DNA of 64,000 nt from Streptomyces sp. NBC_00377 (GTDB taxonomy: Bacteria; Actinomycetota; Actinomycetes; Streptomycetales; Streptomycetaceae). The notes beneath the pieces were generated by a model. The model was given only the letters and a program-made list of their open reading frames with translations. It searched no databases and was not told where the DNA came from. Location: NCBI RefSeq assembly GCF_036075115.1, contig NZ_CP107958.1:6510001-6574000 (forward strand). Reading direction: 5' to 3'. The position numbers and the translations under genes were made by a program. Below are positions 12,410-28,610 of this stretch, one piece after another. Position 1 is the first letter of the stretch, and each line of letters begins with the position of its first letter.

Positions 12410-13822
12410 CTACTCCCCGTACTCCCTCAGCAGCTTGTTGAGGTTGCGGATCTTGTCCACGTCGCGCTTCGGTAGAGGGTCGCTGCTGTTGAAGTGCATG
12501 ACGTTGTTGCGGATCTTGCGGATCTCATCGAGCCGCTCGATGAACACCTTGCGGTCGAGCGGCCATCCGAGTTGCTCCCACAGCTCGGGGTTCTCCAGTA
12601 CGCGTTTGTAGTCGCCGACGGTCATGTCGCCGAAGGACTTGATGCGTTCGCCCTTCGAGTCGCAGAGTTTGGTGACCTCGGGCAGGGTGAAGGCGCCCGC
12701 GATGACCTGCCTCAGCCTGCGGTCCATCTCCCCGATCAGGAGGAAGTGTCCCGCCAGATCGCCGTACGCCTGGGCCACGTCGGCGGCGGTGACAATGCCG
12801 GCGATGGCGTTCCGCTGGTCCCTGACGAGGATGAAGTCGTGCTCGGCCAGTGTGGGCAGGACGTCGATCAGGTCATGGTCGTAGCGGACGTCCCGCGCGT
12901 CCACGATGGCTTGCGAGAGGTGGGCGTCGGGGTCGGCGTGCCGGGCACGAGCTATCGATTTCCAAGAGACGGATCTCGCCAGGCTGTGCGGACCGGCGAG
13001 GACGGGCAGTTGGGAGAAATCGTGGAGCACCATCAGCGTGATGACCTCCTCGAAGGTGGCGGTCGGCTTGACGCTGACGACACCGCCGAGGGCGGACGGG
13101 AGGGTGCCGACGGTCAGCCCGGTCTCGCGTGCCTCCTGCTCTTCGGACGTGCCGACCGGCACTGTGACGGTCGCTGGGGACCCGGCGAGAGGAATGTCCT
13201 CGGTGTCCTCTTCCGCGGCTCTGACGAGGTGGACCGTGGCGGTCAGGGGGACCTTGTCGAACTCGGGCGAAGTGATGAGGCTGTGGTTGGCGAGTTCGGC
13301 TTCGATCTGCTCGTTGACAAGTCCTCGGCCGGTCGCGCCCCACCAGCCCAGCAGCTCCTGTACGGAGATGGTGAGCGGACTTCCTGCCTCGGCCGACTCA
13401 CGTGCCTTCTTCAGTCGGGCGTGGCGCTCGCTGGGGGACAGCGACGTCTGTCGCTCCTCCTCCGGTTCCGCGGGCTCGGCTTCCTCGGCGGCGCGATCCA
13501 GCAGTTCCTGGCGCAACTGCGTAAGGAATCTGCCGTCGTCCACCTGCCACGCCTCCCATCCGTCGAACGTCCCGTACCCGACAGCGACCGTGGCTGCTTT
13601 GGACGGCGAACGGAACTCTTCCCCGTCCGCGAGCCGGATCCATCCCCGGGAGGTGACCGTGGCGTCGTGTTTCTCGCCCATCCGGGGTCGAACGAACGAC
13701 AGGCGCTGGCCTTCCGCCAGAAGCCCGGCGCTGAGCAGATCGGTGAGGGTCACTCGCCGTCCGTCCAGGAGGTAGCGGGCGCGGGACTGCGTCTCTGCGG
13801 GACCGGCGGTGGAATCAGTCAT
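12410..13822 (-). CDS. RAMA - CBS - CBS - HEPN domain protein
   Basis: 470 residues with an unusual modular order. Residues about 12-100 read as a RAMA (restriction enzyme adenine methylase associated) domain: YLLDGRRVTLTDLL, then a G-E-E-F-R-S-P-S-K-A-A segment and an F-D-G-W-E-A-W end. Two CBS repeats follow at about 240-370 (SQLPVL and IAGIVTAADVA are the recognisable ends). The C-terminal 100 residues are helical and contain RNNVMH at 438-443, the R-x4-H signature of HEPN RNases. RAMA is predicted to read modified DNA, CBS pairs bind adenosyl ligands, and HEPN domains often cut RNA in toxin systems. Together they suggest a modification-sensing, ligand-gated RNase effector (inference). The ATG at 13,822 follows GCAGGTGAC. 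An upstream extension of 87 codons has no coding character. Confidence 0.75.
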   Translation of the reverse strand: MTDSTAGPAETQSRARYLLDGRRVTLTDLLSAGLLAEGQRLSFVRPRMGEKHDATVTSRGWIRLADGEEFRSPSKAATVAVGYGTFDGWEAWQVDDGRFLTQLRQELLDRAAEEAEPAEPEEERQTSLSPSERHARLKKARESAEAGSPLTISVQELLGWWGATGRGLVNEQIEAELANHSLITSPEFDKVPLTATVHLVRAAEEDTEDIPLAGSPATVTVPVGTSEEQEARETGLTVGTLPSALGGVVSVKPTATFEEVITLMVLHDFSQLPVLAGPHSLARSVSWKSIARARHADPDAHLSQAIVDARDVRYDHDLIDVLPTLAEHDFILVRDQRNAIAGIVTAADVAQAYGDLAGHFLLIGEMDRRLRQVIAGAFTLPEVTKLCDSKGERIKSFGDMTVGDYKRVLENPELWEQLGWPLDRKVFIERLDEIRKIRNNVMHFNSSDPLPKRDVDKIRNLNKLLREYGE

Positions 13823-13866
13823 GTCACCTGCGCCTTTGTTGATGGAGGGGGCCAAGAGTGTCTGCT

Positions 13867-14805
13867 TCAGAGGTGGCGCCCGATGTGAGCGATGCGGATG
13901 GCCTTTTCGTCGTGAACCAGCCGGAAGTAGATGCGGCCGGCGCCACGGTTCAGATTTCCGTGCAGCTGGAAGCATTCGTCCTTGCCGTTGTCCTCCCACA
14001 TTCGGTCTTTGCGGGAGTTCTCGTGTTCCCCTCTGATGTTCGGAGCTTCCCAGTGAGGTCCTGTGGAGGAATCCGGGTCCCATTGGGCGGCGGTGGCCTC
14101 AAGTTGTCGCAGTAGCTGGCGGGCACCCTTGAACCACCGCGGATCGAGGTTCTCCAGATCATCCTTCACCCGGTCGAGGAACTGGAGATGGGGGAAGAAG
14201 TCTGCTCGCCCGGCCCAGAGTTGGGCTCCACTGGAGACGCGGTCCAGTCCTTCACGGAGAATCCAGTCCTCGTGCTCGCAGAGGTGCGCCTTCCGGGAGG
14301 TGTGCCGGACCTTGTCCGTGTACTCATCGACGACGACGTCTCCGGGCCCAGGGCCCTCCGACAACTCCTCGATGTCCAGGTCCAGCCAGGCGGTGTCCCA
14401 GTCCGAAGCCAGCGGCAGACTGAGCGCGAGCCCGTCCACCATCAAGGCCGCACGAAGTCCGTGGACGTCGACTCCCTTGAAGCGGTGCCATACGTCGTCC
14501 CGCTCGTCCGCAGCCGCTGCGTGCAGGGCGGCTGTGAAGGATGTACAGCGGTCGCGCATCCGCTGGAAGTAGAGAGCCTCTTCCTTGTTGCGGGCGTCAT
14601 TGCGCCATTCCGCGTAGTAGTAGCCCCGTGCGAGTTCCGTCTCGTCGAACGGATTCTGGGTAGCGAGGCTGATGCCGCGCAGACGCTGTAACTGCCTGAG
14701 CACGCCCACGAAGGCGCGCATGCCCTCCGAGACCTCGTCCGCCTCACACTCGGACGCACAGGACCGTTCGTTGAGAAATACATGCAGTGGCACGCCCCAC
14801 CCCAT
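13867..14805 (-). CDS. Hypothetical protein with RelE-like C-terminus, downstream of DUF262/DUF3696
   Basis: 312 residues. The N-terminus has a short beta strand and the motif HVFLNERSC, followed by a helical region. The last 60 residues end in R-I-Y-F-R-L-V-H-D-E-K-A-I-R-I-A-H-I-G-R-H, a strand pattern like the C-terminal sheet of RelE/ParE toxins. It is 61 bases downstream of the DUF3696 ATPase and probably co-transcribed, so it is the likely third component and possible effector of that unit. The start is uncertain: the ATG at 14,805 or the GTG at 14,793. The toxin fold is inferred from sequence pattern only. Confidence 0.6.
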   Translation of the reverse strand: MGWGVPLHVFLNERSCASECEADEVSEGMRAFVGVLRQLQRLRGISLATQNPFDETELARGYYYAEWRNDARNKEEALYFQRMRDRCTSFTAALHAAAADERDDVWHRFKGVDVHGLRAALMVDGLALSLPLASDWDTAWLDLDIEELSEGPGPGDVVVDEYTDKVRHTSRKAHLCEHEDWILREGLDRVSSGAQLWAGRADFFPHLQFLDRVKDDLENLDPRWFKGARQLLRQLEATAAQWDPDSSTGPHWEAPNIRGEHENSRKDRMWEDNGKDECFQLHGNLNRGAGRIYFRLVHDEKAIRIAHIGRHL

Positions 14806-14866
14806 TCCTGTTCCGTGCCTGCGGCCCCGACCCCCCGGGGCGCGTTCGTCGACTCCATGCGCCTGC

Positions 14867-16006
14867 TCAGTCGAGCAGCTGGTCGAGGGAGTTCTCCCAC
14901 TCGTCGAAGAAGCCCTGCGGCCACTCGGAGAGCCGCCCGTCCGGCCCGATCACCGGGCTGACGACTTCCGACGTCTGGTCCTTGCGGCGGAAGTAGTGCA
15001 CGGCCGTCGCGTCGGTGCTCAGCAACCCCTGCTTGACGCGAAGGCGCAGCCCGTTGAGGACGTGGTCGCTGTGTGTCTCCATCACGATCTGCGCCCCGCT
15101 CGCCGCCGCCGCACTCGCCAGGTACGCCATCCAGGTCTGACCCTGCGGATGCAGATGCGCCTCCGGGTTCTCCAGCAGGATCAGCGAGCCGGGCTTGGCC
15201 GACAGACAGGCGACAACGATCGGCAGGGCGTAGGTGAGTCCGAACCCGACGTTGGTGGGCCGGTAGCTGTTGGAGGCGAACGCACCGGAGCCGAAGCTGT
15301 AGCTGAGCCGGACCGCGTCCGTGCCGGCGATGTCCTGCGCCTTCAAGGTCACCCCCGGGCACAACTTCTGCATCCACGCCTGGGTCTGCCCGAGGAGACT
15401 GGAGGACGAGACGTCCGAGAGGATGAGCGGACCCGCCGTGACGGGTTCGTCCTGGTGGGTGCGTAGGTAGTTGACGGTGTGTTCGCCGTTGGCGCCGAGA
15501 AAACCGCGGGTGGTGACGGCGTGGTGCGAACGGGGGTAACTGACCTGGGGGGAGACCCGGTCGGCCTTGAGGTATTGGAAGCCCGGCCCGAACAGGGTCG
15601 GCAGCAAGGCCGCCGGTTCGACGGAGGCCCGGATGTTCTTCTCGTCGTCGTGCTGGAGCAGCTTGAGGTGGTCGGCCTCCTGCTCGTAGAGCGCGGTCCA
15701 CTGCGCCGTCGCTCCGTCTCCCCGAAGCGTGAGCGCGATGTGCGGCCCGGTGTCGTCGTACGACTCGTGCCGTACATCCTGCCCGGTGCCGAGTTGCACC
15801 AGTTCGTCGTTGAGGAGCAACCCGGCATCCCGGTCACCGACCGGGGCGAGGTCGCCCGACTCGTACGACTGACGCAGCAGACCGAGGGACTGGAGTACGG
15901 AACTCTTGCCGGACGAGTTGAGTCCGGTCAGCAGGGTGAAGGGGGCCAGGCGTAGCTCCTGGCGGGCGAATGCCTTGAAATTGGTGAGCGTGAGCGACTC
16001 AAGCAT
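14867..16006 (-). CDS. AAA/ABC-type ATPase, DUF3696 family
   Basis: 379 residues, SMC/RecF-like ATPase. Walker A GLNSSGKSS is at residues 28-36, Walker B LILLENPE is followed by AHLHP, and ETHSDH supplies the switch histidine. The C-terminus has the DUF3696 hallmark E-W-P-Q-G-F-F-D-E-W. The ATG at 16,006 overlaps the end of the DUF262 gene by 8 bases, so the two are translationally coupled. DUF3696 ATPases frequently neighbour DUF262 proteins. The expected role is DNA-end or damage sensing and control of a partner nuclease; direct function is not known. Confidence 0.87.
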   Translation of the reverse strand: MLESLTLTNFKAFARQELRLAPFTLLTGLNSSGKSSVLQSLGLLRQSYESGDLAPVGDRDAGLLLNDELVQLGTGQDVRHESYDDTGPHIALTLRGDGATAQWTALYEQEADHLKLLQHDDEKNIRASVEPAALLPTLFGPGFQYLKADRVSPQVSYPRSHHAVTTRGFLGANGEHTVNYLRTHQDEPVTAGPLILSDVSSSSLLGQTQAWMQKLCPGVTLKAQDIAGTDAVRLSYSFGSGAFASNSYRPTNVGFGLTYALPIVVACLSAKPGSLILLENPEAHLHPQGQTWMAYLASAAAASGAQIVMETHSDHVLNGLRLRVKQGLLSTDATAVHYFRRKDQTSEVVSPVIGPDGRLSEWPQGFFDEWENSLDQLLD

Positions 16007-17225
16007 CCGTGTTCTCCAACACCTCGCGGATCAGGTCCTTCATGGACTGGAAGCGGTAGTTGACCTTGTCGGCGTCGCCAGTACCGGAGGAGATGGAGTC
16101 GTAGAAGTGGGGATCATCCATCAACTTCTGGAATCTCTGTTCAAGGATCAGGGCGCGGTCGCGTAGGGCAACGAGTTCTTCTGCGGTGCACCGGGCCACC
16201 GTGACCGCCTGTACCTCGAAAAGAGCCTTGTTGATCGGGTAACGGCGGGTGACCCCGCTGAACTGCTTACGGAAGGCCCGATCTCCGAGGATCAGTCGGC
16301 AGGCCCGCATCGCGCGGTAGAAGCCCTTTTCCAGATCCGCCAACTCTTGCTCCGGCAAAGAGTTGATGTCGTGCATGGTCCTGCGGAGGAAGCCGTCGAA
16401 ATCCTGTGTGACATATCGCTCGGGGGGAGTCATCGCGAACGCTAGAAAACGCAGGCAGAGTTCACGCTCCGCCATACGGGAGGGATTGACGCTGTGCCCT
16501 GTCGCCTGAAGGAAGAAGCCGCTCTCCGCCAGCTTGGCCAGCAAAGCGCGCGCCGGCCCGGGAATCAGAGCGTGCCGCAGCTCCTGCCGCGTGAGCGGCT
16601 GACCACCCGTGTTGATCCGCGCGAAGATGTTGAACCTGGCCTCCTCCGGCGTGCCCCGCCGGATGAGCAGGACGGAGAGCTCCGTCTCCATAATGCGTGT
16701 CTGCATCCGGCCCGGCAGATCCTCGAAGCGGCTGCCTTCGTACTGAGTCAGGTACTCCAGGTCTCCCAGCCGCAGTGGCTCCAGGCCTGCGGCATCGGGT
16801 TTGACGAAGCGGACGATCGTGGTGAGGCGCTGCACCCCGTCGACCACGGACCAGGACTCGTCGTCCTCCTCCGCCGCGTATAGCGTGGGCAACGCGATGC
16901 GCAGCAGCAGCGACTCGATCAACCGGCTCTGGGCTCTCTCGTTCCAGATGCCCGACTTCCGTTGGAAGTCGGGCTGCAGGTCGATCAGGCCGCGCTTCAG
17001 CCGCTGGATGACGAGGTCGACGGTGGGGTTGCGAGGATGGACCTCGATGAGTTCCGGGTCGAACGGCATCCGGCCGGCTTCGCCGATGTCCTCGACCTCG
17101 ATGCCGGTACTGCGTCCGGTATCGGTGAACTCGACCGCCACCTCTTCCGGCGGGGGCGCCGTGTGATCGTGGGAGGTGGTGTCCGACGACTGTTCCGGCT
17201 CCGGCGCGGGAGCGCTGCCGACCAA
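15999..17225 (-). CDS. DUF262 (GmrS/ParB-like) domain protein
   Basis: 408 residues. After an acidic, proline-rich N-terminal tail, the DUF262 core shows LQPDFQRKSGIWN and the signature VDGVQRLTTI, the D-G-x-Q-R motif that gives this ParB-related family its NTPase and nuclease activity in GmrSD enzymes. No DUF1524/HNH nuclease is fused, unlike the protein at 38,523. The start chosen is a TTG at 17,225 because a perfect GGAGGAG lies 7 bases upstream; no ATG fits better. It is coupled to the DUF3696 ATPase (8-base overlap). Likely role: nucleotide- or modification-dependent sensor of a three-gene defence unit. Confidence 0.85.
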   Translation of the reverse strand: MVGSAPAPEPEQSSDTTSHDHTAPPPEEVAVEFTDTGRSTGIEVEDIGEAGRMPFDPELIEVHPRNPTVDLVIQRLKRGLIDLQPDFQRKSGIWNERAQSRLIESLLLRIALPTLYAAEEDDESWSVVDGVQRLTTIVRFVKPDAAGLEPLRLGDLEYLTQYEGSRFEDLPGRMQTRIMETELSVLLIRRGTPEEARFNIFARINTGGQPLTRQELRHALIPGPARALLAKLAESGFFLQATGHSVNPSRMAERELCLRFLAFAMTPPERYVTQDFDGFLRRTMHDINSLPEQELADLEKGFYRAMRACRLILGDRAFRKQFSGVTRRYPINKALFEVQAVTVARCTAEELVALRDRALILEQRFQKLMDDPHFYDSISSGTGDADKVNYRFQSMKDLIREVLENTDA

Positions 17226-17407
17226 GATCTGCTCCTCCGCATACGTGCATGCCGTCCATGAATCGAACGTGTCCGTACAGTAGCTGATCGACTACTGCCA
17301 GCGCCTTGTGTTCTGTCCGGACGGTGCCAGTAGGGCAGGGGGACCGAGCGGCCCACACGATTCCCTCCGTGGGTCGGGGACGCCCGGTACTCCACCGTCC
17401 GAACGTG

Positions 17408-19480
17408 TCACCTTCGCTGGGCGGGCGCCGCGGGGTTGGGTACGCGTCGGTTGAACACCCACACCCCTTGCGAGTGGGTGGCCCCCATGACCCGCCCCGC
17501 GTTCCGCAGCCACGGATTGGCCCGCTGGAACGGTGCGAAGTTGTCGTTGGAGACGATCACCCCGCCGACCGCGTCGGCGATGCTGATCACCAGCGCGTCG
17601 CCCCGGCCCTCGGTTCCGGCCGGGGGCTGCACGACGGTGTTGTCGGCGATGGCCTTCTCCACGAGGGGGCGCTCCTCGGCGGAGACGTCGTGACGGAGCG
17701 TGGCGTCGACCACGACGTGGATGTCGCTGTCGGGGTGCTTGAACCGCAGCGACCGTACGGCTGCCTCCAGCGCCGCGAAGCTCGGCCTGCCGCCCGCCGT
17801 ACGGGGAGGCCGCCCGTTCCACGCGAGATTGGATCCGTCGATGACGAGCGGCGGCGCGACGGCATTGATACCGGCCGTATGGGGGCCGGAACGCGGCGGA
17901 GCGGGCTTTGCGGCGCCGTTGTTCCGGCTGCTGGCGCCTGCTTGCTGTGGATGGGTCGGGGCGGTCGCCGGGCGGGCGGTGGCCGGGGCGAGGGCGAGCA
18001 GCCGGTCGAGTTCCTTCTTCACCTCCGGCAACACGTTCCCGTCCCCGAACACCTTCACCTCGCCGTCGAGGACGACCTCACCGGTCTTCTGGAGGGTTGC
18101 CCTGACGGTCAGCAGACCTTCCTTGCTGTAGGTGTACTCCAGGTCGAAGACACCGTCCTCGGCCCTGCACCGCTCGGGGTAGGTCAGGACCAGGTCGGTC
18201 AGCTTGACGTTGTCCAGGTGGTCGACCTCACGATCGGGGTCGCCCTCCCACACCTCGACGGTCAGCTGGGAGATGTTGTCCTTCGTCGGCTCGTACGACT
18301 TCACGCGTTGCTGCGGCAGGCGCTGGTTGCGGTCGATGAGGGCGCTGAAGCTCCGCTTGCCCTCGCGGTCCTTGGTGATCGTGCCCAGGGCGTGCGTGTT
18401 GACCACCCGGATGATGCTCTTCAGCTCGCCGTCCATGGCGGCGGCACTGATCGCCGCTCCCTCTGCGACGGCGGTCATCGGGTCGCACAGGGAGGTGTCC
18501 ACGAGTTCGCAGTCGAGTGCTTCGGAGACCGCGGCGCGCACCGCCGGAATCTGACTGCTGCCACCGATCATCAGCACCGCGGTGAGGTCCTGCGGGTCGA
18601 TCCGAGCCTGCTCGAGGCATTCCTCCACCGGGTCGAGCGCACGGTTGATGAGATCCTGAATGGCCTCGGAGAACTCGTCCTGCCCGATCTCGACGGTGAC
18701 GTCGTCGGGCGTCAGGACGCGGACCGACTCCTGATGGGAGAGCAGGATCTTGGCCCGCTCGATCTCCAGGGCGAACATCCGCTTCTCGGAATCGCTCCAA
18801 CGGCCGCGCACCGGTGCCCGGTCGAGGACCATGCGGCGCAGCCGGGCGTCGATCTCCAGGCCGCCGAGCTGGTTGACGCCCCGACTCGCCTTCTCGTCGA
18901 AGAATCCGTCGTCGTGCAGCAGGAGGGTGGCGTCCATCGTGCCGCCGCCCCAGTCGAAGACCAGGAACTCGCCGTCGACCTCCATCTCGTGCGCGTAGGC
19001 GATCGCCGCCGCCGTCGGCTCGTTCAGCAGGGTGCGCACCGTGAGGCCCGCGGCGCGCGCGGCCTCACGGGTCCGGAAGCGGGCCGCCCCGGTCGCGTTG
19101 GCGGGCACGGTGATGACGGCCTCGCGGATCTCGGTCGCGGCCTCTTCCTCCGCCGCCCCCGCGATGGCGTGGAAGACACCGGCGGCGGCGGTGGTCGCAG
19201 CGAACCGCGCACCGCCCAGAGTGACGAAAGGTTCCTCGCGCAGCATCCGCTTGCACGCCTCGACGGCCTGCTCGGAGCGGAGTTTGGCCTCCCAGCCGAA
19301 CAGGGTGCCCGGCCTCAGCGAACTCGTGCCGACGACCGAGGGGTAGAGCAGCTCGAAGCCCTCACGCCGCCAGTTGGCGTCCAGCCCCTGCCCGCCGATC
19401 TCCAGGACCTCGACGTACTCGCCGTTCCACTGGGCCGCGACCGAGTTGGTGGTCCCGAAGTCGATTCCGGCTGCCGTCAT
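17408..19480 (-). CDS. Hsp70 (DnaK-like) ATPase fused to a C-terminal NYN/PIN-type RNase domain
   Basis: 690 residues. The Hsp70 ATPase domain has phosphate-1 GIDFGTTNS at 5-13, phosphate-2 VFDWGGGTMD, and the adenosine motif GGSSQIPAVR. A beta-type substrate-binding region follows. The usual helical lid is absent; in its place is a low-complexity Ala/Pro linker and, from about residue 541, a Zc3h12a/NYN-like nuclease: VIDGSN (547-551), HVVVDA, the G-R-G-D-A-L segment and VSNDNF supply the expected acidic residues. The ATG overlaps the stop of the GrpE-like gene (ATGA). This joins a chaperone switch to a predicted ribonuclease; folding-state-controlled RNA cleavage is a hypothesis. The Hsp70 call is certain; the RNase call rests on motif spacing. 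Confidence 0.88.
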   Translation of the reverse strand: MTAAGIDFGTTNSVAAQWNGEYVEVLEIGGQGLDANWRREGFELLYPSVVGTSSLRPGTLFGWEAKLRSEQAVEACKRMLREEPFVTLGGARFAATTAAAGVFHAIAGAAEEEAATEIREAVITVPANATGAARFRTREAARAAGLTVRTLLNEPTAAAIAYAHEMEVDGEFLVFDWGGGTMDATLLLHDDGFFDEKASRGVNQLGGLEIDARLRRMVLDRAPVRGRWSDSEKRMFALEIERAKILLSHQESVRVLTPDDVTVEIGQDEFSEAIQDLINRALDPVEECLEQARIDPQDLTAVLMIGGSSQIPAVRAAVSEALDCELVDTSLCDPMTAVAEGAAISAAAMDGELKSIIRVVNTHALGTITKDREGKRSFSALIDRNQRLPQQRVKSYEPTKDNISQLTVEVWEGDPDREVDHLDNVKLTDLVLTYPERCRAEDGVFDLEYTYSKEGLLTVRATLQKTGEVVLDGEVKVFGDGNVLPEVKKELDRLLALAPATARPATAPTHPQQAGASSRNNGAAKPAPPRSGPHTAGINAVAPPLVIDGSNLAWNGRPPRTAGGRPSFAALEAAVRSLRFKHPDSDIHVVVDATLRHDVSAEERPLVEKAIADNTVVQPPAGTEGRGDALVISIADAVGGVIVSNDNFAPFQRANPWLRNAGRVMGATHSQGVWVFNRRVPNPAAPAQRR

Positions 19481-20109
19481 GCTTCCTCCCCCGCCTGCAC
19501 ACCCGCGGGTCCGGCGATGCGCCGCAGCTGTCCCGCGAGAATGACCTTTCCTGTCAACTCGTCCACATAGGCCGGACTCAGCAACTCGAAGACGTCTCCC
19601 TCGCCCTCGGTCACCACGAACCGGTCGCTCTCCTCGGGCTCCGTCACCCGTAGCAGCCGCAGCTCCCGCAAGTGCGCCGTCATCGCGCCCTCGACGGTCT
19701 CGCGGCGGTCTCCCGCACGGGACCAGAGCAGCGCGTCGATCTCGGCGACCCGCCCGGCGAACTGTGCGCGGGTGCGGAACTCGTCCAGGACCGCCCTGCG
19801 CACGGCCGCGGTGAGTGCGCCTGCGGGCGGCACATCGTCGGCCTTGGCAGCTTCCAATGCCTCCGGCACGCGGGCCGCGACCCCCTTGATGACCGTCATC
19901 GCGTCGATCGGATCGGGGGGTGAGGGAGCGTCGACGACGCCGGCCTCCGCGGCCGTCACCGGGGTGTCGGCCTGCCGTTCCCTGCGGCGCTTCAGACCTC
20001 CGGGCTTGTGCGGTGCTGACGAGCCCTGCGCGCCCGGTTGCGTCTGGCCGCACGCGGGACACGGGCGGTGTGCTCGCTCTCTCTTGGGCGTCTTTTTCTG
20101 GGAGGGCAT
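19477..20109 (-). CDS. GrpE-like putative nucleotide exchange factor
   Basis: 210 residues. The basic N-terminus has one CPAC pair; a helical, charged middle could form a coiled coil. The C-terminal beta segment FELLSPAYVD followed by GKVILAGQLRR matches the pattern of the GrpE head domain (V-x-E-V-L-x-P-G-Y ... R-V-L-R-P-A). Overall identity to housekeeping GrpE is low, so the call depends on that pattern and on the 4-base overlap with an Hsp70 gene. Expected role: releasing ADP from the partner Hsp70. The ATG at 20,109 was chosen because coding character begins there. Confidence 0.55.
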   Translation of the reverse strand: MPSQKKTPKRERAHRPCPACGQTQPGAQGSSAPHKPGGLKRRRERQADTPVTAAEAGVVDAPSPPDPIDAMTVIKGVAARVPEALEAAKADDVPPAGALTAAVRRAVLDEFRTRAQFAGRVAEIDALLWSRAGDRRETVEGAMTAHLRELRLLRVTEPEESDRFVVTEGEGDVFELLSPAYVDELTGKVILAGQLRRIAGPAGVQAGEEA

Positions 20110-20167
20110 CAGGCCTGCTCTGCTTCGTTCGGTCAGGGCGGTGGGGCGGTCGACGACGTCGGCTGGT

Positions 20168-21862
20168 TCAGTGGGTGGAAGTGTGGCGATCGACGCGCGG
20201 GACGGTGGTCCGGAATTCGTCGAGCAACTCGACGGCGGCACGGGCGCGGATGGCCTCCAGCTCGCCGCCGCTGGTGACTTGCGTCCGGCGAGGCAGCGCT
20301 TCCACGGGGGGCACCAACTGGCGCGGCACCTCGGAGGGCAGGTCGTATCGCGACCGGTCGAGCGGCAGCTGGTAGAAGACGCCCCAGCCCGCCTCGCCGC
20401 GCAGCGCGCCACGGATGCGTTCCTCGGCCATGTTCAGCTCCGACTGGGCCCTTGCGTCGCCCTCGCGTTCCCGGAATATGTCGCGGCAGCGCTCCTCCCA
20501 CCCGCCGGCGCCGTGATCCAGGCCGATCTCCAGGAACGGATTGCTGAACGGACCGCGGTCGTTCCTCTTCGTCCCCCGCCAGGAACGAAGGAGCCGGACG
20601 TTGCGTTCGGCGACGGCCCCTCCCTGCGCGGCGGCCTTCTCGGCGTGCTCCTCGGCGGAGTCGAGCAGCCTGTCCCGTACCGCCGGCGAATCGAGCCGCT
20701 CGCTCTGACCGACGGCCGCGTACGCCGCGATGGCGTGGGCCTCCTGTACCAGGTCGGCGGGAACCTTGCGGTTGCCCACGCTGCTCCGGGTGAGGGAGTA
20801 GGCCTGCTGGGCCGCCGCGTCCAGGTCGCCGTCCTTCACGAGGTCGTAGGCGCGGTTCAGGGCGACGAGGGCGTAGAACGGACTCCGTCCGGCGTCGACG
20901 AGGTCCCTCGGGCGCCACAGGGCGGCCATCAGCGGCCAGAGCCCTCGGTCCTCGGTCATGCTCGGCGGCCACTGCCCTGACAGCGCGCCCGACTTGAGGT
21001 CGCGAAGCTCGATCTGCTGAGGCCGGGGCAGGGCGGCGTCGAGTGCGTCGATGGCCGTCACGTCGCCGGCCATGACGACGTCGTACAACAGGTCCCACAC
21101 GTCGTCCGGTTCCTGGCGGACGAGGGTCTCACCGCGCAGGAAGGATCGTCGGCGGAGATAGGCCTCCCACGCGAGGCGCTCGGCCTGCTCGGCGGTCACC
21201 TTGGCGGGGGCGAGGCGTGCGCGCAGATAGAGGCCTTCCCGCTCGTCCCGGCTCGTCCAGGGAGCGTCCTCGGGCATGAGGCCACCGTGGTCGATCAGAT
21301 CGTCGATGACGGACAGGGGCGCCCACGCGAGAAGCTCGTCGAGAAACCGGTTCGGCACCGGTATCGCGCCGCGTGTGGCCGCGGTCGCGAAGAGGCTGAA
21401 GGCGGGTCCGCCCGAGAGCGCGTGGGAGCGCTTGCTCATCAGGTCCAGGCTGGGCGCCGTCGAGCACAACACCCTGCACCGCTCCAGGCCCGCCTCGTTG
21501 AGCCATCGAACACCGCCGGCCCAGAGGCTCCGCAGATGGCCGAGGACCGACTCCGGCGGCAGGAGACGTAGTGCCGTTTGCACCGCGGGCAACAGGGTCT
21601 CGCGGTCAGGATCACCTTCGAGGGCCTGCGTGAGGACCGCCCGGTCCGCCTCGGGTACCCCGGCGGCGGCCACCGTCTCCGTGAGCATGGCAAGCACGGC
21701 TTCGACCGCCTCGCCGCCCCCGACGCCGAGCCAACGCCACTTGCGCTGGACGAAACCGCTCACGGCTGAGGAGCCTTGGCTCTCCCGGCGTTCACGCGCA
21801 CGTCTCAAGCGCTCTTGTTCAGCGGCCTTCGCTGCCCGACGAGCGGCGGCCGGGTCCGTCAT
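20168..21862 (-). CDS. Hypothetical Hsp70-associated protein with J-like segment lacking HPD
   Basis: 564 residues, largely helical, soluble, with a very basic first 35 residues (repeated A/K/R/E). No full-length family was recognised. Near residues 441-490 the stretch NPFLEIGLDHGAGG and the helix after it resemble helices I and II of a J domain (N-P-Y-x-x-L-G-V-x-x-x-A), ending with an M-A-E-E-R-I helix. The HPD tripeptide needed to stimulate Hsp70 is not present. The gene is 58 bases upstream of the GrpE-like gene, so it may be the third partner of the chaperone set. The ATG at 21,862 (MTDPAAAR) is preferred over a GTG three codons earlier. Confidence 0.5.
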   Translation of the reverse strand: MTDPAAARRAAKAAEQERLRRARERRESQGSSAVSGFVQRKWRWLGVGGGEAVEAVLAMLTETVAAAGVPEADRAVLTQALEGDPDRETLLPAVQTALRLLPPESVLGHLRSLWAGGVRWLNEAGLERCRVLCSTAPSLDLMSKRSHALSGGPAFSLFATAATRGAIPVPNRFLDELLAWAPLSVIDDLIDHGGLMPEDAPWTSRDEREGLYLRARLAPAKVTAEQAERLAWEAYLRRRSFLRGETLVRQEPDDVWDLLYDVVMAGDVTAIDALDAALPRPQQIELRDLKSGALSGQWPPSMTEDRGLWPLMAALWRPRDLVDAGRSPFYALVALNRAYDLVKDGDLDAAAQQAYSLTRSSVGNRKVPADLVQEAHAIAAYAAVGQSERLDSPAVRDRLLDSAEEHAEKAAAQGGAVAERNVRLLRSWRGTKRNDRGPFSNPFLEIGLDHGAGGWEERCRDIFREREGDARAQSELNMAEERIRGALRGEAGWGVFYQLPLDRSRYDLPSEVPRQLVPPVEALPRRTQVTSGGELEAIRARAAVELLDEFRTTVPRVDRHTSTH

Positions 21863-22068
21863 GTCGTACACGCCGACAGGTTATCCATGGGATCTGACAA
21901 TCCATATGGCCTCATACATATCGTGACCATGGGCGATGCGCGGATCCAGGCCACGCGGTCCGGATCCTGGTGCCACGCGAGGAGACGTGAACGGCGGTCA
22001 ATGGGCTCGTGGCCTACTCGGCATCCTGGGGCGTGGCCCCTGACCCACTCGGCTCCGTGGATCTCGTG

Positions 22069-23784
22069 TCAGTGCTCTCGTCTCTTCTGGCCCGCTTCGA
22101 TGGGGACGTGGCCCCGCCGTTGAAGTTCGTCGCGTTCCACGTCAGGGATCGCCATCGACTCGGCGAGCACGGCGGCGAGCGCGTCCACTTGAGCGTTCTC
22201 GATGTCGGAGTGGAAGAGCCACCGGATGTTCTCGTCGCGCGTGATGAGGTCGATGGCCAAGCGCGCGTTCTTGTCCTGGGTCGTCGCCGCTCGGACGTAT
22301 CGCACGTGGTCGATCGGGATGACCTGACGGATCTCGCCTTGCTCGAGGAACGTGTTCGTCCTGGCCGTGATGACGCGGCGATCCGTGACGGCCACCAGTG
22401 TCTTCGCCGCGGTCTTGTCCCTCGCCGCCGCCAGCTTCTCCTTCGCCCCGCCGAGGATCGCGGAAATCGGACCGAGGGCGTCGAGCTGGTCGGGGAAGCC
22501 GAGGACACGCAGGGTCTCGCCGTCATCGAGGAACCATTGCAGGATGCGCAGATACGGCCCGGAATCCAGCGATGTGGGTGCGCAGACGACGCCCGGCGCC
22601 CCGAGTGGAGGAGCCGGCGGCCTGAGAACGTCGGCGAGTGGCTCAATCGCTTCCAGGAGACGGGCGGAGATGTCGCGGGCCGCCTTCACGTCCTTCCGCT
22701 TCCCTGGCAGCGGCCAAGTGTCGGGTCCTGGGAGCTCGGCGATGATCCGCAGTTCTCGCGTCAGCGCGCCGACGAGGTTCGTCGTCTCGGTGAGAGCGGA
22801 GTCGAACTCCGCCCGGGTGTCGCGCGCGATGACGTCGACGAGCCGCGCCTCGTCGGCGTCATCGCGTCCAGCGGCTCTCGCCCTTCCGGCGCGCAGCGCC
22901 TGATATCCGGTCCATGCCTTGACGGAGGACAGGAGGGCGTTGGCGTCGAAGACGATCGCCTCGGCGTTCGTCTGGAGGTACTCACGGCGGCGACTCGGGT
23001 CGGCCCCCTCGATCTCTCCGACGTGACCACGGACGTTCAGCCGGTACAGCTCAAGCTGCTTGCGCAGCGAGGCCTCACTGCCCGCGACGTTGTCCCACAA
23101 GGAGGCGGGGACCGATTCGATCTCCCGCGCGTGGTCGACCGCGCGATCGATGGTGGTGACGAGCCCCGTCAGCTCGGTCCACTGCTCATTGCGGATGGCC
23201 GCGAGTACCTGGCTGGTCAGCGCGATGTTGGTCCTGACAAGACCCGTGACCTCGCTCAGCTGCATCTGAAGGCCGACCATGGCCAGCGCCGGCCCGATCG
23301 AGGCCGCGTTCTGTGCCGTGCTCACCGCAGCTACGGGGAGAAGGCGGGCCTGAGCGACTATTTTTCCGCCGAAGAAAACTGCTCCGAGGTTCGCGCCGTC
23401 CTTCACGGCAAGCGTTGCGCCGGCATTCAGCCAGGCCTGCGTCCCGGCGCCGAGCCTGTAGAGCCCCTGCACGCTGGCGAATGCGTTTCCGAGGTTGCCG
23501 GCCACGGTCGCCGTGTTTCCGATCGCGGCGAGGAGCGTGGATATCTGCTTGCGGTCGACAGCCGGCACGATTCCGAAGTCGAGCAGATCGGCCCTCAGTT
23601 CCGCGGGAACCTCACCGCAGACGACAGCAACCCCTGGAAGTACCTCCACCAGAACCGTCGATACCGTCGTCGAGTCGATGTCGGAGTCAGGTGTCGGATC
23701 GTCCGCAGCAGGTGAGTCGGCGGTATCGCTTTGGCCGTTCTCCTCAGGCTCGGCGATCTCCATCGAGTCCGAAAGGTCCTGCAT
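22069..23784 (-). CDS. Hypothetical protein with PH-like C-terminal domain
   Basis: 571 residues, not recognised as a whole. The first 45 residues are acidic and disordered. A Gly/Ala-rich, moderately hydrophobic region at about 85-190 has no clear membrane helices, and a charged helical middle follows. Near residues 450-545 a beta-rich segment (TLVAVTDRRVITART, IRQVIPIDHVRYVR, then D-L-I-T-R-D) fits bacterial PH-like domains of the YokE/bPH type, which often bind proteins or membranes. The ATG is supported by GGGGGAGGA 5 bases upstream. It is the first minus-strand gene after the regulator cassette and 206 bases upstream of the J-like gene, so it may lead the chaperone unit. Confidence 0.6.
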   Translation of the reverse strand: MQDLSDSMEIAEPEENGQSDTADSPAADDPTPDSDIDSTTVSTVLVEVLPGVAVVCGEVPAELRADLLDFGIVPAVDRKQISTLLAAIGNTATVAGNLGNAFASVQGLYRLGAGTQAWLNAGATLAVKDGANLGAVFFGGKIVAQARLLPVAAVSTAQNAASIGPALAMVGLQMQLSEVTGLVRTNIALTSQVLAAIRNEQWTELTGLVTTIDRAVDHAREIESVPASLWDNVAGSEASLRKQLELYRLNVRGHVGEIEGADPSRRREYLQTNAEAIVFDANALLSSVKAWTGYQALRAGRARAAGRDDADEARLVDVIARDTRAEFDSALTETTNLVGALTRELRIIAELPGPDTWPLPGKRKDVKAARDISARLLEAIEPLADVLRPPAPPLGAPGVVCAPTSLDSGPYLRILQWFLDDGETLRVLGFPDQLDALGPISAILGGAKEKLAAARDKTAAKTLVAVTDRRVITARTNTFLEQGEIRQVIPIDHVRYVRAATTQDKNARLAIDLITRDENIRWLFHSDIENAQVDALAAVLAESMAIPDVERDELQRRGHVPIEAGQKRREH

Positions 23785-24318
23785 GCGATTCCTCCCCCAA
23801 GAGCGCGCAACGGCCGGACGGCGTCGGCGTTCGCTGCCGAAGTCTACGGCTCGACATGCCGCGGCCTAGCTCGAATCCATCAAGCTGATCCCGGACCTGG
23901 CTGGTGCCGGGCGTGGGTGCACCGGCGGCGCGGGACCGCTTCCGCGCCGCCCGAAGCCGCCTGGGAATCCTTCCTGCGGACGGGGTCCTAATGCCCCGCA
24001 GTTCCTTCTAAGTGGGGGTGACGGGACGTCGAGGGGCAGCCGGGTGGCCTGTTGTCTTCCCAGCTCGGCACCGGGGCGCGGGAACCCGTGACACGGTGGC
24101 CCGTGATGTCCTTCAAAGCCCTTGGGGAAACTACCGACCCCACCAAACCCGGCCTGGGCGGGCGCGAGTTGGGGTGCCACCCGTTCGAGTGACGAGGCCG
24201 TCAGGTGGTCGCGCGGGTGGGGTACGGTCGCCGCACACAACCACAGACAGAGAACGGCCCCCGGCAGGACGGCAATCCCGGCGAGGGCCTGACCACACAG
24301 GAAGAATCCCGCTTCCCA
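23785..24318. other. Intergenic region between divergent genes
   Basis: 534 bases without a convincing gene. It must hold the promoter of the minus-strand gene starting at 23,784 and that of the helix-turn-helix gene at 24,319. A TACGGT hexamer near 24,223 is a possible plus-strand -10. A short GC stem (GGCCC at 24,256 and GGGCC at 24,285) lies in the leader of the plus-strand gene. Nothing else is supported. Confidence 0.45.
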
Positions 24319-25341
24319 ATGGCTGACCCGCAGTCTAACGCGGCTGTGTCCGCGTACCCGTTGCCCGAGCGGCACTCTCCGCCCGCGCCTCCGGAGCTCC
24401 CGCCGGACGCGCCCCGCGCCGGAGTCCTCCACGTACGGCACCGCCACACCGAGCGCTACACCGTCGTCGGCAACCACTTGGCCCAGCACCCTCGCCTCTC
24501 CGCCACGGCGATCGGCATCGGCGTGCACATCCAGTCCCTGCCGGACGGCGCTTCCGTGACCATCAAGGCGCTGAGCCTGCGCTTTCCGGAGGGCGAGGTG
24601 ACGATCGGCAAGGCGCTGCGGGAACTGGAGGCGGCCGGGTATCTGGTCCGTCGCCGGGTGCCGCTCGGGGGTGGGCGTATCGCCACGCGTACGTTCTTTC
24701 TCGATCACCCGGGGGTGGGGGTAGCACGAGCCTCGGTGCGGGGCGGCGGTTCGGGGGCGGCTGTTGCTGCTGTCCCGACCTATGCGGTGGCCGGGGATGA
24801 GCGTGAGGTTCTGTCTGCACCGGGGCCGGGAGCTGTTCCGGCGGCAGCGGAGGTCTCGCGGTCGGACTCGGCGCAGGCTTCTTCTGGACGTACGAGGCGT
24901 GCGGCACCCGAACCCGTCGCGGCGTCCACCGGCCCGGCGGCCGACCTGCTCGCGCGGCTGCGGCTCGCCGATCCCCGGCTGCTGCTGTCCGAACGGGACG
25001 TCCAGCGGCTCGTGCCCGCTGTAGAGACCTGGCTCGCCCGTGCCGCGACGTCGGACCAGATCACCCGCACGCTCACCGCCGGCCTGCCGTCCGAGGCCGA
25101 CCCCATCCGCCACCCGGCAAGCCTCCTCGAATACCGGCTGACCACCCTTCTCCCACCGCCATTGCCAGCGGCGCCTTCCTCTACGGCGACGGTGATGTCC
25201 CCACTGCGACCAGTCCCGCTGGTCAGCTGCGACGGTTGTGAACGCGCGATCCGCACGCATGACCCGCACGCACTCTGCCGGGAGTGCCACGAACGCAAAG
25301 GCCGTCGCAAGGTCGAAGTGACCCGACGCTCGGTCGCCTGA
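24319..25341 (+). CDS. Winged-helix (MarR/DnaD-like) DNA-binding protein with C-terminal zinc ribbon
   Basis: 340 residues. After a proline-rich N-terminus, residues about 35-120 form a winged helix: HLSATAIGIGVHIQSLP-like helices, a recognition helix at VTIGKALRELEAAGYLVRR, and a wing ending in ATRTFFL. A disordered linker follows. The end carries CDGCERAI and CRECHE, a four-cysteine zinc ribbon. Proteins of this layout are common in Streptomyces next to XRE/DUF397 pairs and are presumed transcription regulators. The ATG at 24,319 has AGGAAG about 15 bases upstream, so an upstream GTG start is possible. Confidence 0.7.
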   Translation: MADPQSNAAVSAYPLPERHSPPAPPELPPDAPRAGVLHVRHRHTERYTVVGNHLAQHPRLSATAIGIGVHIQSLPDGASVTIKALSLRFPEGEVTIGKALRELEAAGYLVRRRVPLGGGRIATRTFFLDHPGVGVARASVRGGGSGAAVAAVPTYAVAGDEREVLSAPGPGAVPAAAEVSRSDSAQASSGRTRRAAPEPVAASTGPAADLLARLRLADPRLLLSERDVQRLVPAVETWLARAATSDQITRTLTAGLPSEADPIRHPASLLEYRLTTLLPPPLPAAPSSTATVMSPLRPVPLVSCDGCERAIRTHDPHALCRECHERKGRRKVEVTRRSVA

Positions 25342-26562: not shown

Positions 26563-27189
26563 TCACACCATCCGAATTGCTGCCTTGAGGTCGTCCATGA
26601 AGGTTTGCCAGGACGGTAGTTGGGACACCGGGCCGTAGGGGTCGAGGCGTTCGAGCAACTTGTGGCGATGGTGGGGGAAACGCTTCTGGAAGCCTGCCAA
26701 GCGCCGTCCGGTACAGCCGCTTGCGGCGGCCAGGGTGTCCTTGAGGAGCTTCTTGGGGTCGACGACCTTCTCGGCTGCCACTCCGGTGGGGAGATTCAGT
26801 TTCATCCGGCCGTTCGGATTTTCGGCGACCTGCCGGATGCTCGCCTCGTCGAGGAGCAGCCATGCCTCCAGCATCCGTACGGGAACGACCGCGATGTGGG
26901 GATGGCCGGGCCATTCGGCGGCGACCGCCTTGGCGACCTCTTCCCTGCGGTCGTCGCCGGATGTCCCGTCCGCGTCCCGGTGGACGATGATCAAGTCGTA
27001 GTCGTCGCCGAACTTACGCACCTTGCGCAACTTCTCCGGGACCGCGTGGCAGGACGTGAAGCCCAGCCGACCGAAGTCCGGAGACGTGATCGAGACCGCC
27101 TTGCCGGAAGAAGCGGCGACCGCCTCGATATGCGGGACAAGCCCGTCATCGCTGGTGCCTTCGCCGGTGAACAGGATCCGCAGGGTCAC
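26563..27189 (-). CDS. DUF4276 family TOPRIM protein
   Basis: 208 residues. The N-terminal LFTGEG places the catalytic Glu at residue 10, and IIVHRDADG gives the D-x-D at 72-74; together they define the TOPRIM metal site used in OLD-family and PARIS-type nucleases. The GTG start overlaps the stop of the upstream ATPase gene (GTGA), so the two proteins are made together. This split ATPase plus TOPRIM arrangement is analogous to OLD/Gabija (fused or paired) and to PARIS (AriA/AriB, where AriB is DUF4435). It is the probable nuclease effector of the pair. Confidence 0.83.
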   Translation of the reverse strand: MTLRILFTGEGTSDDGLVPHIEAVAASSGKAVSITSPDFGRLGFTSCHAVPEKLRKVRKFGDDYDLIIVHRDADGTSGDDRREEVAKAVAAEWPGHPHIAVVPVRMLEAWLLLDEASIRQVAENPNGRMKLNLPTGVAAEKVVDPKKLLKDTLAAASGCTGRRLAGFQKRFPHHRHKLLERLDPYGPVSQLPSWQTFMDDLKAAIRMV

Positions 27190-28610
27190 GCGGCACCCCA
27201 GTCGATGAGTGTGGTCTGCGCTCCTGGCGGAGTGGTGAGGTACGGGAGGATGTCGGCTTTGGTCACGTAGTCGCGCCGTCCTTCGGTGACCCGCCAAGTG
27301 TCGTGAAGCGGGCGCAGCCGTAGCGCGCGAGCTGTCGAGCTGTCCTCTAGCCGGTGTACGGCTGTCTCCGCGAAGAGCAGGTCTTCGGGTGACACGAGCT
27401 GGACGACACCGGGGGAGTGGGTGTTGATGAGTACCTGCCGGAACGGGTTGTCCGGGCCGGGCTCGGCTGTGGGATCGACGGCGAGATCTCTGACGAGGTC
27501 GACCATGGGGATGAGGTTCGCCGGATGGATGCCGTTCTCCGGTTCCTCCATGCACACCATGCCTCGAACGGTCGGGTCCTCCAGCAGGACGCACAGTGCG
27601 AGAAAGCGCAGAGTGCCCTCGGAGAGGCTGCGGGCCGGGAGCATCATGCCGTCCGGCTCACGTACGTGGACGGTGAGTAGCTGACGTACCTCGTCCTGGT
27701 CCACTCCCAGGTCCCGGACCTGGACGCCGGTCATGTCGGACAGACGTCCGGCGACCCGTGCGTACACCTGCTCGGGATCTCCGCTGGGCGTGGTGTGCGC
27801 GACGCGGTACAGAGCGGCCGGCAGGTGTGATCCGTCGACCCCCATCACCTGTGCGTCGATGAATCGGTCGGCGCTCCGCAGAGCTGACGGCTCAAGAGCC
27901 AGTCGTCGCCAGGACTCCATCTCACGGCGAGCGGCGAGAATCGTCGGGTCGTCGCTGGAGGTGATGGTGGACACCACGGTGGCGGGAGCGCGTGAAGCGG
28001 CGGCGGGTTTCGGCTGACCCCGGCTGCCACCGTCCTGGTGGATCTTGACGATGGATTCGCCCGATGTGGCATCCGTGTCGGTCGAGATGAAGGGTGCGCC
28101 GCTGCGATGACCGGCGATGACCGCGTTGCGGAATTGGCCTGCACTGTGCGGGAAACGCAGATGCTGCTTGGCTTCACCCTTTGTGATGTGGCGCAGGTTC
28201 TCGCGGAGAAGCGTGAGCCGACCGAACCGGTCCAAGCCTGAGGGTTCCTGGTAACCGATCTCCAGCTCGTAGCGGAGGAAGGACGTCGTTGGCTTGGCGG
28301 CTCGTCCGAAGTCGTCTTCGATCGCCAGCGGCACGATCATCTCGGCCGCGAACCGCATGCGGTGATGGCCGGAGGCGAAACCCTTCCAGAAGAGGTCACG
28401 TGGATCACCGTGACGTTCTCCGTGTACGCCACGAACCTCCTGGGCGGCCTCCATCATCGACTTGTCGGCGAGCAGGGAAAGGAACTGGATCGCGTCGAAC
28501 ACGTTCGACTTGCCGGTGCCGTTCTCGCCCGCGATACAGGTGAAGGGGCCGAAATCGATGGACAGTTCCAGCAGGTTCTTGAACCCGTGGACTTCCAGTC
28601 GGGTGAGCAT
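27186..28610 (-). CDS. OLD/RecF-like AAA family ATPase
   Basis: 474 residues. Walker A GENGTGKS is at 28-35, the ABC signature region reads RSLSEGTLRFL, Walker B is MVCMEEPENGIHP, and NTHSPG carries the switch histidine. The middle is a large helical insertion, as in OLD proteins, but no TOPRIM is fused; that activity is in the next gene. Its ATG at 28,610 shares one base with the methyltransferase stop (TGATG), and its own stop overlaps the DUF4276 start. Hence methyltransferase, ATPase and TOPRIM genes form one coupled block. Likely role: sensing foreign DNA or a phage inhibitor and licensing the TOPRIM nuclease. Confidence 0.9.
   Translation of the reverse strand: MLTRLEVHGFKNLLELSIDFGPFTCIAGENGTGKSNVFDAIQFLSLLADKSMMEAAQEVRGVHGERHGDPRDLFWKGFASGHHRMRFAAEMIVPLAIEDDFGRAAKPTTSFLRYELEIGYQEPSGLDRFGRLTLLRENLRHITKGEAKQHLRFPHSAGQFRNAVIAGHRSGAPFISTDTDATSGESIVKIHQDGGSRGQPKPAAASRAPATVVSTITSSDDPTILAARREMESWRRLALEPSALRSADRFIDAQVMGVDGSHLPAALYRVAHTTPSGDPEQVYARVAGRLSDMTGVQVRDLGVDQDEVRQLLTVHVREPDGMMLPARSLSEGTLRFLALCVLLEDPTVRGMVCMEEPENGIHPANLIPMVDLVRDLAVDPTAEPGPDNPFRQVLINTHSPGVVQLVSPEDLLFAETAVHRLEDSSTARALRLRPLHDTWRVTEGRRDYVTKADILPYLTTPPGAQTTLIDWGAA

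What the first reader, a model, noticed from the sequence alone, without database searches (positions are those of the whole stretch)
17408..21862. Hsp70 fused to a predicted NYN/PIN RNase, with its own GrpE-like and J-like partners
The Hsp70 keeps all ATPase motifs but has lost the helical lid and instead ends in a Zc3h12a/NYN-like domain (IDGSN at about 547-551, VVVDA, GRGDAL, VSNDNF). The two upstream genes resemble a GrpE head domain and a J domain, and GrpE-like to Hsp70 is an ATGA overlap. A client-sensing chaperone cycle that controls an RNase would be a new way to trigger abortive defence: binding of a phage protein could switch the nuclease on. I know of no described anti-phage system with this architecture.
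Basis: partly seen in the sequence, partly recalled or inferred. Interest (0 to 1): 0.88.

Follow-up and report, generated by a model that had tools for sequence, protein, structure and literature searches.

The report
Hsp70-RNase chaperone cassette in defence islands
A Streptomyces defence island carries a three-gene cassette in which a chaperone of the Hsp70 kind has its lid replaced by a predicted RNA-cutting domain, next to two partners that look like remodelled chaperone helpers, which may be a way for bacteria to sense a virus through protein quality control and answer by cutting RNA.

Summary
The observation largely holds. Window 17408-19480(-) encodes an Hsp70 (ATPase and substrate-binding beta domain kept, helical lid gone) fused to a Zc3h12a/NYN RNase domain above Pfam's cut-off. 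Upstream lie a GrpE-like and a TPR/J-like gene; both assignments are remote, and none of 57 J-like relatives contains HPD. It is not an artefact: the three genes occur together in 26 of 31 loci from named genomes and in another actinobacterial family (L193). Four catalytic acids are kept in 43 of 43 active-type domains. 23 of 41 such loci have an antiphage-type gene within three genes; 124 random genes at 19 places of the own genome gave at most 5 hits. The neighbouring system differs from locus to locus, so the trio looks like its own unit. In one branch the NYN has decayed; in its sister it is absent and the trio follows Druantia type IV genes. I read it as a chaperone switch with an exchangeable effector, here an RNase. 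No function has been tested. Nine literature searches listed no such system.

The parts
17408..19480 (-). Hsp70-NYN fusion, 690 aa: ATPase domain about 1-355, SBD-beta about 356-490, variable linker about 491-540, NYN RNase domain about 541-680
   Evidence: PF00012 and PF11977 both above cut-off; ATPase motifs aligned with two DnaKs of the same genome; D548, D592, D628, D646 kept in 43 of 43 active-type domains; domain bounds set by me
17441..17860 (-). NYN/Zc3h12a-like RNase domain (residues about 541-680)
   Evidence: PF11977 27.1 bits, cut-off 23; weak match to solved ZC3H12B/C (best E 0.1); dN/dS 0.09-0.23 in nine pairs
19477..20109 (-). GrpE-like protein, 210 aa, with a CPxCG knuckle at the N-terminus
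   Evidence: No Pfam match; HHalign to canonical GrpE score 34.7, 70% probability, 0 of 100 column shuffles as high; three solved GrpEs align to model residues 111-203 at Z 4.2-4.5, among unrelated rows of like Z; model pLDDT only 63.6; with a GrpE HMM 0 of 48 single sequences beat the best shuffle
20168..21862 (-). TPR/J-like protein, 564 aa: TPR-like repeat about 309-435 and HPD-less J-like segment about 441-495
   Evidence: Model pLDDT 89.5, nearly all helical; TPR rows; Foldseek's first hit is the TPR-J co-chaperone P58(IPK) but at E 0.14; J segment versus DnaJ profile score 22.6, 30% probability, 0 of 100 shuffles as high; no HPD in 57 relatives
19477..19480 (-). 4-base ATGA overlap of the GrpE-like stop and the Hsp70 start
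   Evidence: Read; same overlap in 26 of 27 related loci
15999..17225 (-). Neighbour, not part of the unit: NsnA-like (GmrSD_N) gene
   Evidence: PADLOC NsnA 3.2e-130; beside the cassette in the window and 4 of 31 loci
14867..16006 (-). Neighbour: NsnB-like AAA ATPase
   Evidence: PADLOC NsnB 1e-117
13867..14805 (-). Neighbour: NsnC-like
   Evidence: PADLOC NsnC 1.3e-94
12410..13816 (-). Neighbour: RAMA plus CBS, DS-11-type antiphage protein
   Evidence: NCBIfam NF053863 266.7 bits, cut-off 260; PF18755
1875..8912 (-). Neighbour further off: DruE-like helicase, 2345 aa
   Evidence: PADLOC DruE3 7.7e-85

Best explanation
A self-contained three-gene defence module in which a dedicated Hsp70 cycle gates an RNase. 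Shown: the fusion, the conserved ATPase and NYN active-site residues, the fixed gene order with a 4-base overlap, and a defence-rich setting in a bit more than half of the loci. Inferred: the TPR/J-like protein is the recognition arm and brings a phage product, or a host protein disturbed by infection, to the Hsp70. The GrpE-like protein sets how long the ADP state lasts. Because the NYN domain takes the place of the lid on a loose linker, binding or clustering of the client frees or pairs up the NYN domains, which then cut RNA and stop phage growth, probably by stopping the cell. The nuclease is the exchangeable part: in a sister branch it has decayed or gone, and where it is gone the trio follows a Druantia type IV helicase.
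For: NYN above Pfam cut-off; four acids in 43 of 43 active-type domains, near-copies among them; purifying selection on NYN, dN/dS 0.09-0.23 against 0.25-1.02 for the linker; ATPase motifs kept; cassette conserved while neighbours change; 23 of 41 active-type loci have, within three genes, a member of a cluster with a PADLOC match at 1e-20 or better, against at most 5 matching genes of 124 at 19 random places; settings include Nsn genes and DS-11, DpdE/DrmMI with LeoBC/LeoA, DruE-like helicase with DpdE, SF1 helicase, type I methylase; Hsp70 tree with NYN decay in C and absence in B; the TPR/J-like gene has the highest dN/dS of the folded parts in eight of nine pairs, as a recognition arm might. 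Precedent that DnaJ/DnaK can feed phage sensing: bNACHT25 (PMC12169576, passages).
Against: No activity, defence or RNA target has been tested. No J-like relative of 57 has HPD, so the usual J stimulation cannot be assumed. The Hsp70 interdomain linker differs from DnaK's LLLDV, so ATP-driven coupling to the SBD is uncertain. 18 of 41 loci had no neighbour in a recognised cluster, and 6 of 9 unclassified neighbour proteins had no PADLOC match. Counted by protein, the skew is modest: at least 10 of 120 cluster representatives against at most 5 of 124 random genes. L039 has no J-like gene; no GrpE-like gene was called in L192. The J-like protein has no match on plasmids or phages and none was confirmed in viral contigs.
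Confidence: 0.45

Rival explanations
1. The trio is an assembly or licensing chaperone for the large helicase-based systems beside it (DruE-like, DpdE/DrmD-like, Druantia IV). The NYN domain serves to hold or trim RNA in those complexes and is not a toxin.
For: DruE-family helicases recur beside the trio: L029, L036, L037, L040, L047, L101 and L103-L111 by cluster, checked by PADLOC in L103, L036, L101, L040 and L047, and also found in L035, L192 and L194; the trio without NYN follows Druantia IV genes; the window also has a DruE-like gene.
Against: In the Nsn, Leo, SF1-helicase and type I methylase settings the partners change while the three genes stay; the four acids are kept without exception in the NYN branch.
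Confidence: 0.28
2. An RNA or ribosome quality-control unit: the Hsp70 binds RNA or nascent chains, and NYN cleaves stalled or foreign mRNA. It sits in islands as a general stress module.
For: CoCoNuT authors argue that Hsp70 homologues in RNA-targeting systems bind RNA (PMC11090510, passages); the outer relatives L195 and L196, without NYN, are flanked by genes that read as ordinary metabolism (my reading of the protein starts, no family search).
Against: More antiphage-type neighbours than at random places; patchy presence, 21 of 295 Streptomyces genomes with an NYN match, unlike a housekeeping system.
Confidence: 0.17
3. A decoy or guard that only binds phage factors; the NYN fold is mainly a docking surface.
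For: A branch keeps a decayed NYN (L102, L113-L116): D592 and D628 are lost in 5 of 5.
Against: 43 of 43 in the other branch keep all four acids.
Confidence: 0.06

Closest known systems
GAP1-N2 GTPase-centred conflict systems, HSP70/GrpE theme (Kaur et al. 2020, PMC7159879)
   Same: Predicted conflict system with HSP70, GrpE and a DnaJ- or TPR-fused protein, mostly in actinobacteria and firmicutes (passages)
   Different: Built around a GAP1-N2 GTPase and FNIII proteins; the term NYN occurs 0 times in the main text. No GTPase among the eight genes scanned in the window
CoCoNuT systems, CnuD and Hsp70-McrB fusions (PMC11090510)
   Same: Hsp70 NBD/SBD fused or linked to an RNA-targeting restriction system, often with Druantia type III and type I RM (passages)
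   Different: McrB/McrC core and HEPN RNases; their Hsp70 Walker A-like motifs are called degenerate, whereas here the ATPase motifs are kept; GrpE, DnaJ, PIN domain and NYN occur 0 times in the main text
Druantia type IV (PADLOC, PMC8565338)
   Same: The no-NYN relatives of the trio lie after DruL4 and DruE4 genes in Streptomyces
   Different: The published definition (DruE, DruF, DruL; passage) has no Hsp70 trio, and no PADLOC model matched the trio
Regnase/ZC3H12 NYN RNases
   Same: Closest solved NYN domains, sharing IDGSN and VSNDN (best E 0.1)
   Different: Eukaryotic, CCCH zinc finger instead of Hsp70 (recalled)
P58(IPK)/DNAJC3
   Same: TPR repeat followed by a C-terminal J domain (layout recalled); first Foldseek hit of the J-like model
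   Different: E 0.14, not significant; its J domain has HPD (recalled), here absent
bNACHT25, sensing through DnaJ (PMC12169576)
   Same: Phage sensing that depends on the DnaJ-DnaK cycle (passages)
   Different: Uses host DnaJ and a NACHT protein, not a dedicated Hsp70-RNase

Membership tests
Hsp70 | PF00012 ATPase and SBD core | tested here: met
   194.6 bits, cut-off 20.6; phosphate, NEPTAAA and GGSSQIP motifs aligned with DnaK
Hsp70 | Alpha-helical lid | tested here: not met
   Match ends at profile 489 of 599; residues after about 490 are linker and NYN; the fusion itself was not folded
Zc3h12a-like NYN RNase (PF11977) | Profile match above cut-off | tested here: met
   27.1 bits, cut-off 23
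Zc3h12a-like NYN RNase (PF11977) | Catalytic acids | tested here: met
   D548, D592, D628, D646 in 43 of 43 active-type rows; 5 type-C rows fail. That these are the catalytic ones is recalled plus the alignment
Zc3h12a-like NYN RNase (PF11977) | RNase activity | not testable with these tools
   Needs an assay
GrpE | PF01025 match | tested here: not met
   0 Pfam families; 0 of 48 relatives beat the best shuffle with a GrpE HMM
GrpE | GrpE head fold | tested here: inconclusive
   HHalign 70%, 0 of 100 shuffles as high; Z 4.2-4.5 to three GrpEs; Foldseek alone not significant, GrpE at rank 49; weak model
J-domain protein | HPD motif | tested here: not met
   0 of 57
J-domain protein | J fold (helices I-IV) | tested here: inconclusive
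   Helices 442-445, 455-465, 470-488, 492-495; profile score 22.6 at 30%, 0 of 100 shuffles as high; 10 of 57 relatives beat every shuffle, but none of these is a Streptomyces copy with NYN, and the window's own scores -3.7
Druantia type IV | DruE4 and DruL in the operon | tested here: not met
   Eight genes 12410-23784 scanned, none; a DruE3-like gene lies at 1875-8912
Menshen | NsnABC | tested here: not met
   NsnABC is adjacent but the trio itself has no PADLOC hit, and 27 of 31 loci lack NsnABC in the stretch held
GAP1-N2 HSP70 systems | GAP1-N2 GTPase and FNIII protein | tested here: inconclusive
   No such Pfam hit in the eight genes 12410-23784; not searched with a dedicated model
CoCoNuT | McrB GTPase with McrC | tested here: not met
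   No McrBC Pfam hit in the eight genes 12410-23784

The most novel reading that the evidence does not exclude
A full Hsp70-GrpE-J switch has been domesticated as an immune sensor that can be plugged into different effectors: an NYN RNase fused in place of the lid in one branch, a decayed NYN in another, and the Druantia type IV helicase in a third. The bacterium would thus read viral infection through a private chaperone cycle.
Probability: 0.3. Interest if true: 0.92.

Novelty: new variant of a known kind. Interest (0 to 1): 0.73.

Why it matters
If right, it gives a direct case of an Hsp70 cycle used as an antiviral trigger, with the nuclease put where the lid should be, so that client binding and effector release can be tested in one protein. 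It would also point to an overlooked part of Druantia type IV loci in Streptomyces, where the same trio appears without the RNase, and it adds a three-gene family that no PADLOC model matched.

Tried and rejected
Plain J domain: rejected, no HPD in 57 relatives and no Pfam match. Fusion as assembly artefact: rejected by independent genomes. Part of Menshen: rejected as the main reading, since NsnABC flanks only 4 of 31 loci plus the window. Carriage on plasmids or phages: no match for the J-like protein; in viral contigs one peptide pattern gave 22 stretches, none confirmed; the NYN piece was tried on plasmids only.

Fold search of the GrpE-like model gave no hit with E under 0.001. Profile searches of PDB sequences found nothing useful for either partner. 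A first profile comparison used wrongly oriented DnaJ and GrpE rows; I redid it with orientation fixed, keeping 27 of 30 rows of each family. In one search the best J hit lay at the NPYL motif in only 14 of the 43 J-like proteins that scored.

In the tree rows from 13 listed loci of near-copies were dropped, 320 aligned residues were required, and only one of two DnaKs entered, on a long branch, so the root is unsure. The family tally (110 families against 3) overstates the skew, because one helicase or kinase can match many models; no listed family matched more than 2 of the 120.

The J-like model is large, so a missing J hit excludes nothing. Promoter scan of 16900-22300: none of the sigma-70 type.
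Full report
What is there. On the minus strand, 21862 to 17408, three genes follow each other: a 564-aa protein (20168-21862), a 210-aa protein (19477-20109) and a 690-aa protein (17408-19480). The last two overlap by the four bases ATGA. The 690-aa protein matches Hsp70 (PF00012, 194.6 bits) and, at residues 544-659, the Zc3h12a-like NYN RNase family (PF11977, 27.1 bits, cut-off 23). The Hsp70 match stops at profile position 489 of 599. An alignment with two DnaKs of the same genome shows the phosphate loops, NEPTAAA and the adenosine motif kept, an SBD-beta, and no lid. The hydrophobic interdomain linker of DnaK is altered. This is the only PF11977 match found in the genome.

Is it real. In genus Streptomyces 21 of 295 genomes, own genome included, have a match to the NYN domain at E 1e-5; for four of them (G017, G026, G108, G293) the match is of the decayed type or a short piece. 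A scan of named genomes gave 31 loci. Of these, 27 have the GrpE-like gene and 26 also the J-like gene; in two of the 26 (L047, L050) the contig breaks off before the NYN part. L039 has no J-like gene, and in L029 the J-like frame is only 299 aa. Of the four loci without either partner, L053 and L054 lie at contig ends, and L055 and L056 are short NYN pieces. The 4-base overlap is found in 26 of 27. Outside Streptomyces the fusion occurs in Actinacidiphila and Peterkaempfera, in one genome of another family of the order (L101, no J-like gene detected), and in two genomes of another family of the class (L192, without a called GrpE-like gene, and L193). The GrpE-like profile was found in 29 of 293 genomes of the order. 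A phylum-wide search with the first J-like profile found 2 of 396 genomes; a class-wide search with a broader profile found 9 of 394.

The NYN domain. Of 48 proteins with the domain in my loci, 43 keep D548, D592, D628, D646, N551 and N645; the five of type C (L102, L113-L116) have lost D592 and D628. The 43 include near-copies. Nei-Gojobori dN/dS for the domain is 0.09-0.23 in nine pairs with the window, against 0.25-1.02 for the linker and 0.06-0.18 for the ATPase domain. So the active site looks under selection in the main branch.

The partners. The 210-aa protein has no Pfam match. Its family profile compared with 27 canonical GrpEs scores 34.7 (70%); 100 column shuffles average 11.8, sd 2.2, none as high. 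A second look at fold matches places three solved GrpEs on residues 111-203 with Z 4.2-4.5 and rmsd 3.4-4.1 over 71-74 residues, among unrelated rows of like or higher Z. The model is poor (pLDDT 63.6), and single sequences do not beat shuffles (0 of 48). I call it GrpE-like, unproved. The 564-aa protein folds with confidence (pLDDT 89.5) into a helical protein with TPR-like repeats. Its C-terminal segment has the helix order of a J domain; its profile scores 22.6 (30%) against DnaJ, shuffles 9.7, sd 2.5, none of 100 as high. 10 of 57 relatives beat all 1140 shuffled controls with a J HMM: L193-L196 and six of the no-NYN Streptomyces branch. No Streptomyces copy with NYN does, and the window's scores -3.7. 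HPD is absent in all 57. The best Foldseek hit is P58(IPK), a TPR-J co-chaperone, but at E 0.14.

The setting. The gene block next downstream is NsnA, NsnB, NsnC, which I know as Menshen (name recalled), then a RAMA-CBS protein of DS-11 type. The rest of the window looks like a defence island: a DruE-like helicase, an AAA ATPase of HEC-01A type, a type IIG restriction enzyme, a DrmD-like helicase and a type IV restriction enzyme. Across loci the neighbours change (clusters; one member of each cluster scanned unless said): Nsn genes beside the window and four loci; DpdE and DrmMI before and LeoBC/LeoA after the trio in L093, L094, L097, L098 (scanned in L094); DruE-like helicase with a kinase, plus DpdE, in L029, L036, L037 (scanned in L036); an SF1 helicase in L092, L099, L100 (scanned in L100); a type I methylase in others (scanned in L041).

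To measure this I took up to three genes of 100 aa or more on each side in 41 active-type loci: 197 genes, in 120 clusters. One gene per cluster hit 110 PADLOC families at 1e-20; 124 genes from 19 random places of the window's genome hit 3 families with 5 matches in all. That tally counts families, and one protein can match many. Recounted: at least 10 of the 120 representatives lie in clusters with such a match, against at most 5 of 124; by locus, 23 of 41 have such a neighbour and 18 do not, against at most 5 of 19 random places (one-sided Fisher 0.03; related loci are not independent). Of nine further unclassified neighbour proteins, three had a match at 1e-4. So more than half of the copies sit beside a known antiphage-type gene, the skew is real but moderate, and no single partner is constant.

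Relatives without the nuclease. In L103-L111 the trio has an Hsp70 of 574-588 aa without NYN and follows an 1812-1821-aa helicase that is DruE4 (2182 bits in L103); the gene before it is DruL4 (tested in L106). The published definition of Druantia type IV names DruE, DruF and DruL (passage), and no PADLOC model matched the trio. In the Hsp70 tree these B rows, with L194, are one group and the type-C rows with decayed NYN another; B and C are sisters (100/99), and L101, with an intact NYN, is their sister (99/99); L193 joins next with weak support (86/57). The simplest reading is one NYN fusion, then decay in C and loss in B. Separate gains cannot be excluded, and the root is unsure because of a long outgroup branch. 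An outer pair, L195 and L196, has a free J-like protein, a GrpE-like protein and an Hsp70 without NYN.

How it may work. The TPR/J-like protein is the likeliest recognition arm: it has the highest dN/dS of the folded parts in eight of nine pairs. The Hsp70 would hold the client, the GrpE-like protein would time release, and the NYN, tied by a loose linker where the lid should be, would be freed or paired when clients gather. RNA cleavage would then stop the phage, most likely with the cell. Every step after the anatomy is inference.

What is known. Nine literature searches were made; seven of them joined Hsp70 or DnaK with NYN, PIN, Druantia or defence words. None listed an Hsp70-NYN system by title or by the passages I opened; subscription papers are mostly missing from that library. 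The nearest ideas are the HSP70/GrpE/DnaJ theme in GAP1-N2 systems (PMC7159879, passages), CoCoNuTs (PMC11090510, passages) and DnaJ-dependent sensing by bNACHT25 (PMC12169576, passages). Passages of PMC8195603 and PMC3710099 were also opened and bear on it little; PMC12839542 held none of the terms. The kind, a chaperone-type NTPase that gates an effector, has been proposed before; this architecture and the link to Druantia IV appear new within those searches.

Noticed in passing
L103-L111; e.g. L103:202-9972: Streptomyces Druantia type IV genes (DruL4-DruE4) are followed by the J-like, GrpE-like and Hsp70 genes without NYN; no PADLOC model matched this trio.
   Followed up: partly
L102, L113, L114, L116 (Hsp70 C-terminus); L115 fragment: A branch of the same Hsp70 carries a decayed NYN domain that has lost two of the four acids.
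   Followed up: partly
L093, L094, L097, L098: Composite gene runs: DpdE and DrmMI, then the trio with NYN, then dynamin-like LeoBC/LeoA genes.
   Followed up: no
L195, L196: A free-standing 130-137-aa J-like protein with Hsp70 and GrpE-like genes in what reads as an ordinary chromosomal setting; possible ancestor of the trio.
   Followed up: partly
window 22069-23784 (-): 571-aa protein without Pfam or PADLOC match directly upstream of the trio; among the 31 named loci found only in L027 and L030.
   Followed up: no
window 1875-8912, 27186-40385 (-): Large defence island: DruE-like helicase, HEC-01A ATPase, type IIG restriction enzyme, DrmD-like helicase, type IV restriction enzyme.
   Followed up: partly
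window 24089-24318 (+): Rfam match to Streptomyces sRNA scr4677, 63.1 bits, overlapping the start of an ORF at 24205-25341.
   Followed up: no
L055:8001-8222, L056:8001-8126: Short leftover pieces of the NYN end with no trio found around them, perhaps deletion scars.
   Followed up: no
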